42,790 bases of DNA from Anaerolineae bacterium (GTDB taxonomy: Bacteria > Chloroflexota > Anaerolineae > Anaerolineales > Anaerolineaceae), in NCBI GenBank assembly GCA_013177815.1, contig JABLXM010000008.1:1-42790 (forward strand), written 5' to 3'. Below the pieces are notes generated by a model that saw only the letters and a program-made list of their open reading frames with translations, was not told where the DNA came from and searched no databases. Position 1 is the stretch's first letter. Every line of letters begins with the position of its first letter. Below are positions 5,959 through 7,790 of the stretch, piece after piece. Made by a program: the position numbers and the translations under genes.

Positions 5959-6939
5959 CTATGCCGTGGTCGATGGTTTGGCGGCAGTCAGTGTCAGGCT
6001 GGAGATTGCAACATCGAACACATCGCCGGAGTGCGCGCGCTTCTGGACCTGCGGGTCAGAAAACCCCGCCTGCCGCAGCAGCGCCAGGTATTCGCCTTCT
6101 GGTATGGCGCCAAAGATGCAATCGCCCCAGCGCGAAGGGTCGGCGCTGACTTCGCCGGGAAACGAACCACTGGCAACAATATCGCTGATCTCCAGTCTAC
6201 CGCCGGGCTTCAGCACGCGGAAGGCTTCGTTGAACACCTGCCCCTTGTCCTCGCACAGGTTGATGACGCAGTTGGACATCACCACATCCGCGCTGCCGTC
6301 CGGTAGCGGGAGCGCCTCGGCGGTCCCTTTGCGAAATTCCACATTGGCAATGCCCATGCGCCGCGCCGCCTGTCGCGCGCGACCCAGCATGACCGGGGTC
6401 ATGTCCACGCCGATGACCTTCCCCTTCTCCCCCACCTGGCGGGATGCCAGAAAACAGTCCAACCCGCCCCCGCTGCCGATGTCCACCACCACCTCGCCCG
6501 GCTGGAGCAAAGCCAGGGCGGTCGGGTTGCCGCAGCCCAACGCCATGCCAGCCGCTTCTTCCGGGATCACCGTCGTGTCGATCGCGGCATAGTCCGGTTG
6601 GATGTTTACGCCTTCGCTATCTGGATTGTCGGGGGAAGCGCAGCAGATGTTCACTCCGCTGCCGCTGCCGCAGCAAGCCGCGCCGGTGCGGGCGCGCGCA
6701 GCATACTGTTCCTGAACGTGTTCGCGCGCGCCATTGACCCGCTTGGTGCCGACTGCGGCGAACACGCTGATGCGAGCCTGCTCGTTTGGCTCGTCTGCCC
6801 CTGTATCGCCTGCATGCGTCGCGCAGCAGTCTTCACCGGTGCAATCCACCAGGCGGTTCACCAGCCCGGCTTGTTCGAACCAATCCAGCACCTGGCGGCG
6901 CTCGAACCCAAGCCATTCGTCTGCCATCTCAGCCTTCAT
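5959..6939 (-). CDS. arsM: Arsenite methyltransferase (ArsM) domain preceded by the C-terminal tail of an upstream methyltransferase domain
   Basis: AREHVQEQYAARARTGAACCG, LGCGNPTALALLQPGEVVVDIGSGGGLDCFLA, SNCVINLCEDK, WGDCIFGA (ArsM Cys set). N-term MKAEMADEWLGF...ISVFAAVGTKRV is the tail of the ORF encoded upstream. Confidence 0.85.
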   Translation of the reverse strand: MKAEMADEWLGFERRQVLDWFEQAGLVNRLVDCTGEDCCATHAGDTGADEPNEQARISVFAAVGTKRVNGAREHVQEQYAARARTGAACCGSGSGVNICCASPDNPDSEGVNIQPDYAAIDTTVIPEEAAGMALGCGNPTALALLQPGEVVVDIGSGGGLDCFLASRQVGEKGKVIGVDMTPVMLGRARQAARRMGIANVEFRKGTAEALPLPDGSADVVMSNCVINLCEDKGQVFNEAFRVLKPGGRLEISDIVASGSFPGEVSADPSRWGDCIFGAIPEGEYLALLRQAGFSDPQVQKRAHSGDVFDVAISSLTLTAAKPSTTA

Positions 6940-7385
6940 CCAAACATGCTCGTGCGTGTCCAGGCGGTCAATATCGTCCGCCCGCCGGGCGCCAGCACGC
7001 GCGCCATCTCGCGAATTGCAGCGAGCGGATCAGGGCAGTGGTGCAGGTACATGTTGGCGAAGACGGCGTCCAGGCTGTCATCCGGAAAGGGCAAAGCCAG
7101 CCCGTCCGCCAGCTCGAAGACCACATTCGCCATGCCGGAGAGGTTCTGGCGAGCCACTGCCAGCATCTCCGCCGAGCCATCCACCAGGTGGACACGCCTG
7201 ACCAGTGGCGCCAGGGCGGCGGCGATGAACCCGGTGCCACCGCCGATATCTGCGACTGCCATTTCCGGGCGCAGGTGCGCCCGCTGGATGGCTGCCTGGC
7301 GCACCCGCTCGGGGAAAAACCCCTCGCGCAGTGCATCCCATTCGCCGGCGACCTGTTTGAAATAAGAGGAAGTATTGGATTTCAT
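6936..7385 (-). CDS. SAM-dependent class I methyltransferase (ArsR-associated type), C-terminus displaced by apparent frameshift
   Basis: VADIGGGTGFIAAALA SAM motif; stop TGA overlaps the downstream ATG (ATGA). Confidence 0.75.
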   Translation of the reverse strand: MKSNTSSYFKQVAGEWDALREGFFPERVRQAAIQRAHLRPEMAVADIGGGTGFIAAALAPLVRRVHLVDGSAEMLAVARQNLSGMANVVFELADGLALPFPDDSLDAVFANMYLHHCPDPLAAIREMARVLAPGGRTILTAWTRTSMFG

Positions 7386-7409: not shown

Positions 7410-7425
7410 ATCGTAAAAATACGAT
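7410..7425. promoter_or_regulatory. ArsR-type operator, copy 2 (ATCGTA-AAAA-TACGAT)
   Basis: Perfect inverted repeat between arsR and the methyltransferase; same half-sites as the element upstream of arsR. Confidence 0.65.
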
Positions 7426-7442: not shown

Positions 7443-7748
7443 TCACTGGCAGCACTCGCTGAGCCAGTTGCCGATCTGATTCTTGAGCCAGCGTACCCCT
7501 TCCGTGTCGAGGCAATAGCAGGTTGCGGGTCCCTCGTACTCTCCCTGGATCAAACCCGCATCCCGCAGCACCTTGAGGTGCTGGCTGATGGTGGATTGCG
7601 CCAGCGGCGTGCTCTGCACGATGTCATTGGTGATGCAAGTTTGGTGTTCCGCCAGAAATTGGATGATGCGGAAACGCACCGGGTTGCCAAGCGCTTTGAG
7701 CATCCTCGCCAGGCGCTGCTGATCTTGAGAGAGGGCAATGGTATCCAT
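7443..7748 (-). CDS. arsR: ArsR-family metalloregulator
   Basis: wHTH: RLARMLKALGNPVRFRIIQFLAE...STISQHLKVLRDAGLIQGEYEG; C-terminal ECCQ. Confidence 0.9.
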   Translation of the reverse strand: MDTIALSQDQQRLARMLKALGNPVRFRIIQFLAEHQTCITNDIVQSTPLAQSTISQHLKVLRDAGLIQGEYEGPATCYCLDTEGVRWLKNQIGNWLSECCQ

Positions 7749-7754
7749 ATCGTT

Positions 7755-7774
7755 ATATCGTAATTATACGATAT
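7755..7774. promoter_or_regulatory. ArsR-type operator, copy 1 (ATATCGTA-ATTA-TACGATAT)
   Basis: Perfect 8-bp arms, 4-nt centre, overlaps the -10 box. Confidence 0.7.
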
Positions 7775-7790
7775 AGTCTCGCCCTGTCAA
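7763..7790 (-). promoter_or_regulatory. sigma70-type promoter of arsR (TTGACA-16-TATAAT on minus strand)
   Basis: -35 TTGACA at 7790-7785, -10 TATAAT at 7768-7763, 14 nt to the ATG. Confidence 0.7.

What the first reader, a model, noticed from the sequence alone, without database searches (positions are those of the whole stretch)
5959..7385. Double methyltransferase fusion (ArsR-type MTase + ArsM) interrupted by an apparent 1-nt deletion
In the minus strand the first ORF reads ...GGRTILTAWTRTSMFG*, while the next frame gives DTHEHVWMKAEMADEWLGF..., the expected MTase C-terminal continuation. Adding one base near 6965 (accgcctggac to accgNcctggac) gives GGRTILT(D)LDTHEHVWMKAEMADEWLGF. The tail then runs in frame into ArsM with no Met at the ArsM boundary (ISVFAAVGTKRVNGAREHVQEQY), implying one ~475-aa two-domain protein. 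The shift also creates an ATGA stop/start overlap, so reinitiation could rescue expression.
Basis: partly seen in the sequence, partly recalled or inferred. Interest (0 to 1): 0.65.

Follow-up and report, generated by a model that had tools for sequence, protein, structure and literature searches.

The report
Broken copy of fused arsenic methyltransferase

Summary
On the minus strand a 149-aa methyltransferase ORF (6936-7385) loses frame near 6966, and the adjacent frame (5959-6966) carries the rest of that domain and runs without a boundary into a canonical ArsM. The fusion is real and normal: 46 loci from Anaerolineae and related Chloroflexota, isolates included, encode the same N-MTase–ArsM protein in one open frame (two cut by contig ends). 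None is interrupted here, and the window nests in their single clade. The window is one base short in the codon of an Asp present in 44 of 44 intact homologues. All 36 invariant N-domain residues are kept, so the change is an assembly error or very recent; reads must decide. Rescue by reinitiation is not supported: the ATGA overlap follows from the ordinary coding sequence. Beyond the finding: the two enzymes are adjacent but unfused (arsM first) in other Chloroflexota and fused in reverse order in two unrelated lineages, which argues for functional coupling. An ArsR with the cysteine pattern of ArArsR sits upstream, with palindromic operators before arsR (40/40 loci) and before the fused gene (33/40). 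I found no paper describing this double enzyme.

The parts
7763..7790 (-). Putative arsR promoter: TTGACA (7785-7790), 16-nt spacer, TATAAT (7763-7768) inside operator 1
   Evidence: Read directly from the sequence; consensus match only.
7757..7772 (.). Operator-like palindrome 1, ATCGTATAATTACGAT, before arsR
   Evidence: One of only two exact matches in the whole draft genome; present before arsR in 40/40 fused loci that have arsR.
7443..7748 (-). arsR, 101-aa ArsR/SmtB repressor with Cys38, Cys77, Cys79, Cys99, Cys100
   Evidence: NF033788 75 bits over cut-off 55; Cys38 and Cys79 in 41/41 and Cys77 in 38/41 homologues.
7410..7425 (.). Operator-like palindrome 2, ATCGTATTTTTACGAT, between arsR and the fused gene
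   Evidence: a site here in 33/40 homologous loci.
6936..7385 (-). ORF1: N-terminal UbiE-like methyltransferase as far as strand beta5, plus 10 out-of-frame codons
   Evidence: Methyltransf_11 5e-25; 23/23 invariant residues kept.
6960..6970 (-). Frame change: one base short in the codon of an Asp invariant in 44 homologues
5959..6966 (-). Second frame: end of the N-domain (beta6-beta7, TGxxCC motif), Cys-rich linker and ArsM; first ATG in frame at 6939
   Evidence: 13/13 invariant residues of the N-domain remainder kept.
6025..6732 (-). ArsM domain with the three invariant cysteines (GCGNP, SNCVINL, GDC)
   Evidence: NF008823 residues 79-314 of the frame; closest solved structure 5evj CrArsM; Cys columns.

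Best explanation
The locus is an arsR / methyltransferase-arsM arsenic-methylation operon whose second gene normally encodes one ~475-aa protein with two class I methyltransferase domains. SHOWN by sequence comparison: the fusion is ancestral to a Chloroflexota clade, and this copy has lost one base in an invariant Asp codon at the end of strand beta5 of the first domain, separating it into two frames. INFERRED: the loss is an assembly error (about 50%) or a very recent, unfixed or just-fixed mutation (about 42%), not an evolved split. INFERRED mechanism of the intact protein: ArsR releases its two operators on binding As(III) or methylarsenite. The ArsM domain then methylates As(III) through its three cysteines, while the tethered, Cys-bearing N-domain is a partner methyltransferase that shares or assists the successive methylations, a division of labour like that of tandem phosphoethanolamine methyltransferases. 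If the shift is real, the truncated N-domain (without beta6 and beta7) should not fold, and ArsM would be made only weakly, if at all, from the internal ATG.
For: Intact fused ORFs of 474-526 aa in 15 of 60 relatives' genomes and in 46 genome-contig loci including Anaerolinea thermolimosa, Levilinea saccharolytica, Ornatilinea apprima, Longilinea arvoryzae and Flexilinea flocculi. One clade, support 98/94, with the window nested inside. Coding frame flips exactly at 6966. 36/36 invariant N-domain residues kept, N-domain conservation relative to ArsM ranks 43rd of 45, missing codon Asp in 44/44. Predicted fold puts that residue at the end of beta5, with beta6 and beta7 encoded only after the shift. 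Partnership of the domains: both genes unfused in 15 loci, mostly adjacent, and two reverse-order fusions, L079 and L089. Conserved double operator and ArsR cysteines. Tandem-MTase precedent by fold: plant phosphoethanolamine methyltransferases rank first.
Against: Reads were not available, so error and mutation cannot be separated. The sampled assembly is not rich in frameshifts: no credible case other than this one in 329 kb, though with only 43% sensitivity, and the site is not a homopolymer; both mildly favour a real mutation. The N-domain has no tested activity, and in two relatives (L017, L019) its SAM motif is degenerate while ArsM is intact, so it is not always needed as an enzyme. The division-of-labour step is inference only, well below the stated confidence, which is for the broken-fusion reading.
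Confidence: 0.9

Rival explanations
1. The frameshift is an assembly or consensus error in a metagenome-assembled genome; the organism has an intact fused gene.
For: Draft of 261 contigs, 88.9% complete, many contigs of about 14 kb; no decay anywhere in the gene, all invariant N-domain residues kept; unique among 46 loci.
Against: No other credible frameshift in 329 kb of the same assembly (sensitivity 43%); not a homopolymer.
Confidence: 0.5
2. A genuine, recent loss-of-frame mutation (strain variant or new pseudogene). ArsM may be lost or made weakly by reinitiation at 6939.
For: Low apparent frameshift rate of this assembly; relatives L017 and L019 show that the N-domain can decay while ArsM is kept; Acr3 and ArsP lie elsewhere in the genome, so arsenic resistance need not depend on ArsM.
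Against: No accompanying decay; this is the only strong ArsM match in the draft, so inactivation would carry a cost wherever methylation matters.
Confidence: 0.42
3. A functional split: translational coupling at ATGA, or programmed frameshifting, yields two proteins or regulated full-length protein.
For: ATGA overlap present; ORF2 intact.
Against: ATGA follows from the ordinary coding sequence (5/44 intact genes have it; 17/44 would stop at the same codon after a one-base loss). No slippery heptamer, no unusual RNA fold (z -0.92), best Shine-Dalgarno match before 6939 only 3 nt. The cut lies inside the Rossmann sheet, not between domains.
Confidence: 0.06

Closest known systems
[quoted passage not shown] CmArsM, CrArsM 5evj)
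   Same: C-terminal domain exceeds the family cut-off, keeps the three arsenic-binding cysteines and the SAM motif.
   Different: Preceded by a second complete methyltransferase domain in the same protein; here the frame is broken inside that first domain.
ArsRM of Brevundimonas (PMC10190100) and TtArsM of Thermus (PMC8649762)
   Same: Arsenic-linked methyltransferases reported outside the canonical ArsM group; ArsRM is ArsR fused to an MTase.
   Different: Neither is fused to a canonical ArsM; whether the N-domain here is their orthologue was not tested (their sequences were not at hand).
ArsSM fusion (Yang et al. 2024, title cited in PMC12124457)
   Same: By its title, ArsM fused to a second enzyme of arsenic metabolism.
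   Different: The partner there is ArsS (from the name; the paper itself was not read), not a second UbiE-like methyltransferase.
Tandem phosphoethanolamine methyltransferases (5wp4, 5wp5)
   Same: Two class I methyltransferase domains in one chain; top fold matches.
   Different: Different substrate and sequence; a precedent for the mechanism only.
ArArsR of Arsenicibacter rosenii (PMC11868830)
   Same: Cys38/77/79 here have exactly the spacing of its tested Cys41/80/82; its footprint contains ATCGTAATATTGCGAT, the same palindrome type.
   Different: Chloroflexota instead of Bacteroidota; lacks a counterpart of Cys43; two operators instead of the one footprinted.

Membership tests
ArsM (NF008823) | Score over curated cut-off (263 bits) | tested here: met
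   289 bits
ArsM (NF008823) | Three conserved arsenic-binding cysteines | tested here: met
   Invariant in 44 homologues and kept in the window; aligned with 5evj
ArsM (NF008823) | Methylates arsenite | not testable with these tools
   No assay
Anaerolineae N-MTase-ArsM fusion (defined here) | Both domains, in this order, with Cys-rich linker | tested here: met
Anaerolineae N-MTase-ArsM fusion (defined here) | One open reading frame | tested here: not met
   Frame broken near 6966
Anaerolineae N-MTase-ArsM fusion (defined here) | Phylogenetic position inside the fused clade | tested here: met
ArArsR-type repressor | Cys41, Cys80, Cys82 equivalents | tested here: met
   Cys38, Cys77, Cys79 with identical spacing (PMC11868830)
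ArArsR-type repressor | Binds operator, released by As(III) and MAs(III) | not testable with these tools
   Operator-like sites present; no binding data
TtArsM-type methyltransferase (for the N-domain) | Sequence orthology to TTC0109 | not tested
   Sequence not at hand; that paper's tree includes an Anaerolineae protein
Programmed frameshift gene | Slippery site plus stimulatory structure, conserved in relatives | tested here: not met

The most novel reading that the evidence does not exclude
Anaerolineae and related Chloroflexota make an undescribed two-headed arsenic methyltransferase in which an unnamed Cys-bearing methyltransferase works in series with ArsM, an association fused independently in both orders; the window caught a lineage starting to dispense with the first head.
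Probability: 0.2. Interest if true: 0.6.

Novelty: new variant of a known kind. Interest (0 to 1): 0.36.

Why it matters
The break itself matters little. The intact family matters more: Anaerolineae are among the taxa correlated with dimethylarsenate in paddy soils (Leptolinea and Anaerolinea variants, and a Longilinea arsM host, PMC11031232). Their ArsM carries a second methyltransferase that occurs next to or fused with ArsM in several arrangements, so how far arsenic is methylated may depend on a partner that single-domain ArsM assays leave out.

Tried and rejected
Programmed frameshifting: no slippery heptamer, RNA fold z -0.92. Reinitiation signal: rejected on comparison with intact genes and for lack of a good Shine-Dalgarno. 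Decaying pseudogene: rejected, no loss of invariant N-domain residues. A frameshift-ridden assembly: not supported; the only candidate, window 20918(+), is antisense to an enolase-like and a glycerate-kinase-like ORF (names from memory). Genome-wide file for a fuller frameshift count: not available, so about 10% was sampled. No same-genus genome was among the relatives held. Arsenic-specific neighbours of the standalone N-type MTases: none found in the few ORFs scanned. No paper on the double-MTase fusion was found, but the library omits most subscription journals.

Full report
CHECK. The minus strand carries arsR (7443-7748), then an ORF of 149 codons (6936-7385) and, in the next frame, an open stretch down to 5959. 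The first ORF is a UbiE-like class I methyltransferase; the second frame holds ArsM over the curated NCBIfam cut-off. A codon-usage score trained on the same genome is positive in the first frame down to 6966 and in the second frame after it, apart from a few weak 60-nt bins in the second frame, mostly around the Cys-rich linker.

IS THE FUSION REAL? A search of 60 related genomes returned 15 single open frames of 474-526 aa that match across the break. A profile search of GTDB genomes returned 80 loci (the best 80 of 168). Of these, 46 have the first MTase followed by ArsM in one frame (two cut by contig ends), in Anaerolineae and related Chloroflexota including cultured isolates. None is split. 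A maximum-likelihood tree of the first domain places all of them in one clade (98/94) with the window nested inside. The two unfused rows in that clade are one that ends at its contig edge (L092) and one whose sequence departs after the N-domain about 170 nt before the contig end (L067).

WHAT THE BREAK IS. The window is one base short in the codon of an Asp found in 44 of 44 intact homologues. It keeps 23/23 invariant residues before and 13/13 after the break, and its first domain is not less conserved, relative to ArsM, than in intact genes (rank 43 of 45). A predicted structure of an intact homologue (mean pLDDT 83, pTM 0.84) puts that residue at the end of strand beta5, so ORF1 lacks beta6 and beta7. 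This is an error or a very recent event.

ERROR OR MUTATION. The genome is a draft of 261 contigs. A frameshift scan with 43% sensitivity on simulated deletions found no credible case in 329 kb of it, so the assembly is not generally poor. The present break would itself be hard for that scan to see, because stop and start are near. The reads decide.

REINITIATION. The ATG at 6939 is the codon of a mostly hydrophobic position (Leu 25, Met 15, Phe 3, Gln 1 of 44). ATGA is there in five intact genes, and 17 of 44 would reach a stop at the same codon after a one-base loss. No Shine-Dalgarno of note, no RNA structure beyond chance. The overlap is no adaptation.

WHAT THE INTACT SYSTEM LOOKS LIKE. 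In other Chloroflexota the same two genes are separate, arsM first (15 split loci in all, one each in Methylomirabilota and Actinomycetota; in two of the 15 other sequence lies between them, and in the actinobacterial one, L110, the ArsM-like ORF is on the opposite strand). In two unrelated lineages they are fused in the reverse order (L079, L089). Repeated adjacency and fusion in both orders point to joint function. In two relatives the first domain has lost its SAM motif while the frame into ArsM is kept (L017, L019). The upstream ArsR has the cysteines of the characterised ArArsR (PMC11868830) in 38-41 of 41 homologues. Palindromes of the type in the ArArsR footprint lie before arsR in 40/40 loci and before the fused gene in 33/40, and are otherwise rare (88 matches with up to two mismatches in 543 kb). 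In the draft genome the exact palindrome occurs only at these two places. That ArsR controls both transcripts is inferred. The genome also has Acr3 and ArsP on another contig.

MECHANISM. Shown: domain content, conserved cysteines and SAM motifs, operator sites, fusion and neighbourhood patterns. Inferred: derepression by As(III) or methylarsenite (by analogy with ArArsR), arsenite methylation by the ArsM domain (family knowledge), and a helper or serial role of the N-domain (from fusion in both orders, with tandem phosphoethanolamine methyltransferases as precedent). The last step is the weakest.

NOVELTY. Fusions of ArsM or of other arsenic-linked MTases are known (ArsSM, ArsRM), and tandem methyltransferases are known in phospholipid metabolism. 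A canonical ArsM joined to a second complete methyltransferase was not found in the library searched. The broken gene is ordinary; the family is a new variant of a known kind.

Noticed in passing
window 7410-7425 and 7757-7772; 40 homologous loci: Conserved double operator ATCGTAnnnnTACGAT before arsR and before the fused gene, the same palindrome type as in the ArArsR footprint of Arsenicibacter; the first overlaps a TTGACA-16-TATAAT promoter with a very short leader.
   Followed up: yes
L079:2415-4109 and L089:669-2120: Reverse-order fusions, ArsM first and the partner methyltransferase second, in a Chloroflexota and a Bacteroidota MAG; outside the forward-fusion clade in the tree.
   Followed up: partly
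L017 (G017) and L019 (G033): Fused proteins in which the first domain has lost its SAM-binding motif while the reading frame into ArsM is kept: pseudo-methyltransferase domains.
   Followed up: partly
L085:1342-2208 and L091:2747-3505: A third methyltransferase ORF between arsM and the partner methyltransferase in some split loci.
   Followed up: no
L067:2471-3286: An N-domain of the fused clade whose sequence departs from the family after the TGxxCC-type motif, with no ArsM before the contig end about 170 nt on.
   Followed up: partly
G000:C68:2835-5952: Acr3 and ArsP-type permease genes next to each other on another contig; the exact palindromic operator does not occur there.
   Followed up: partly
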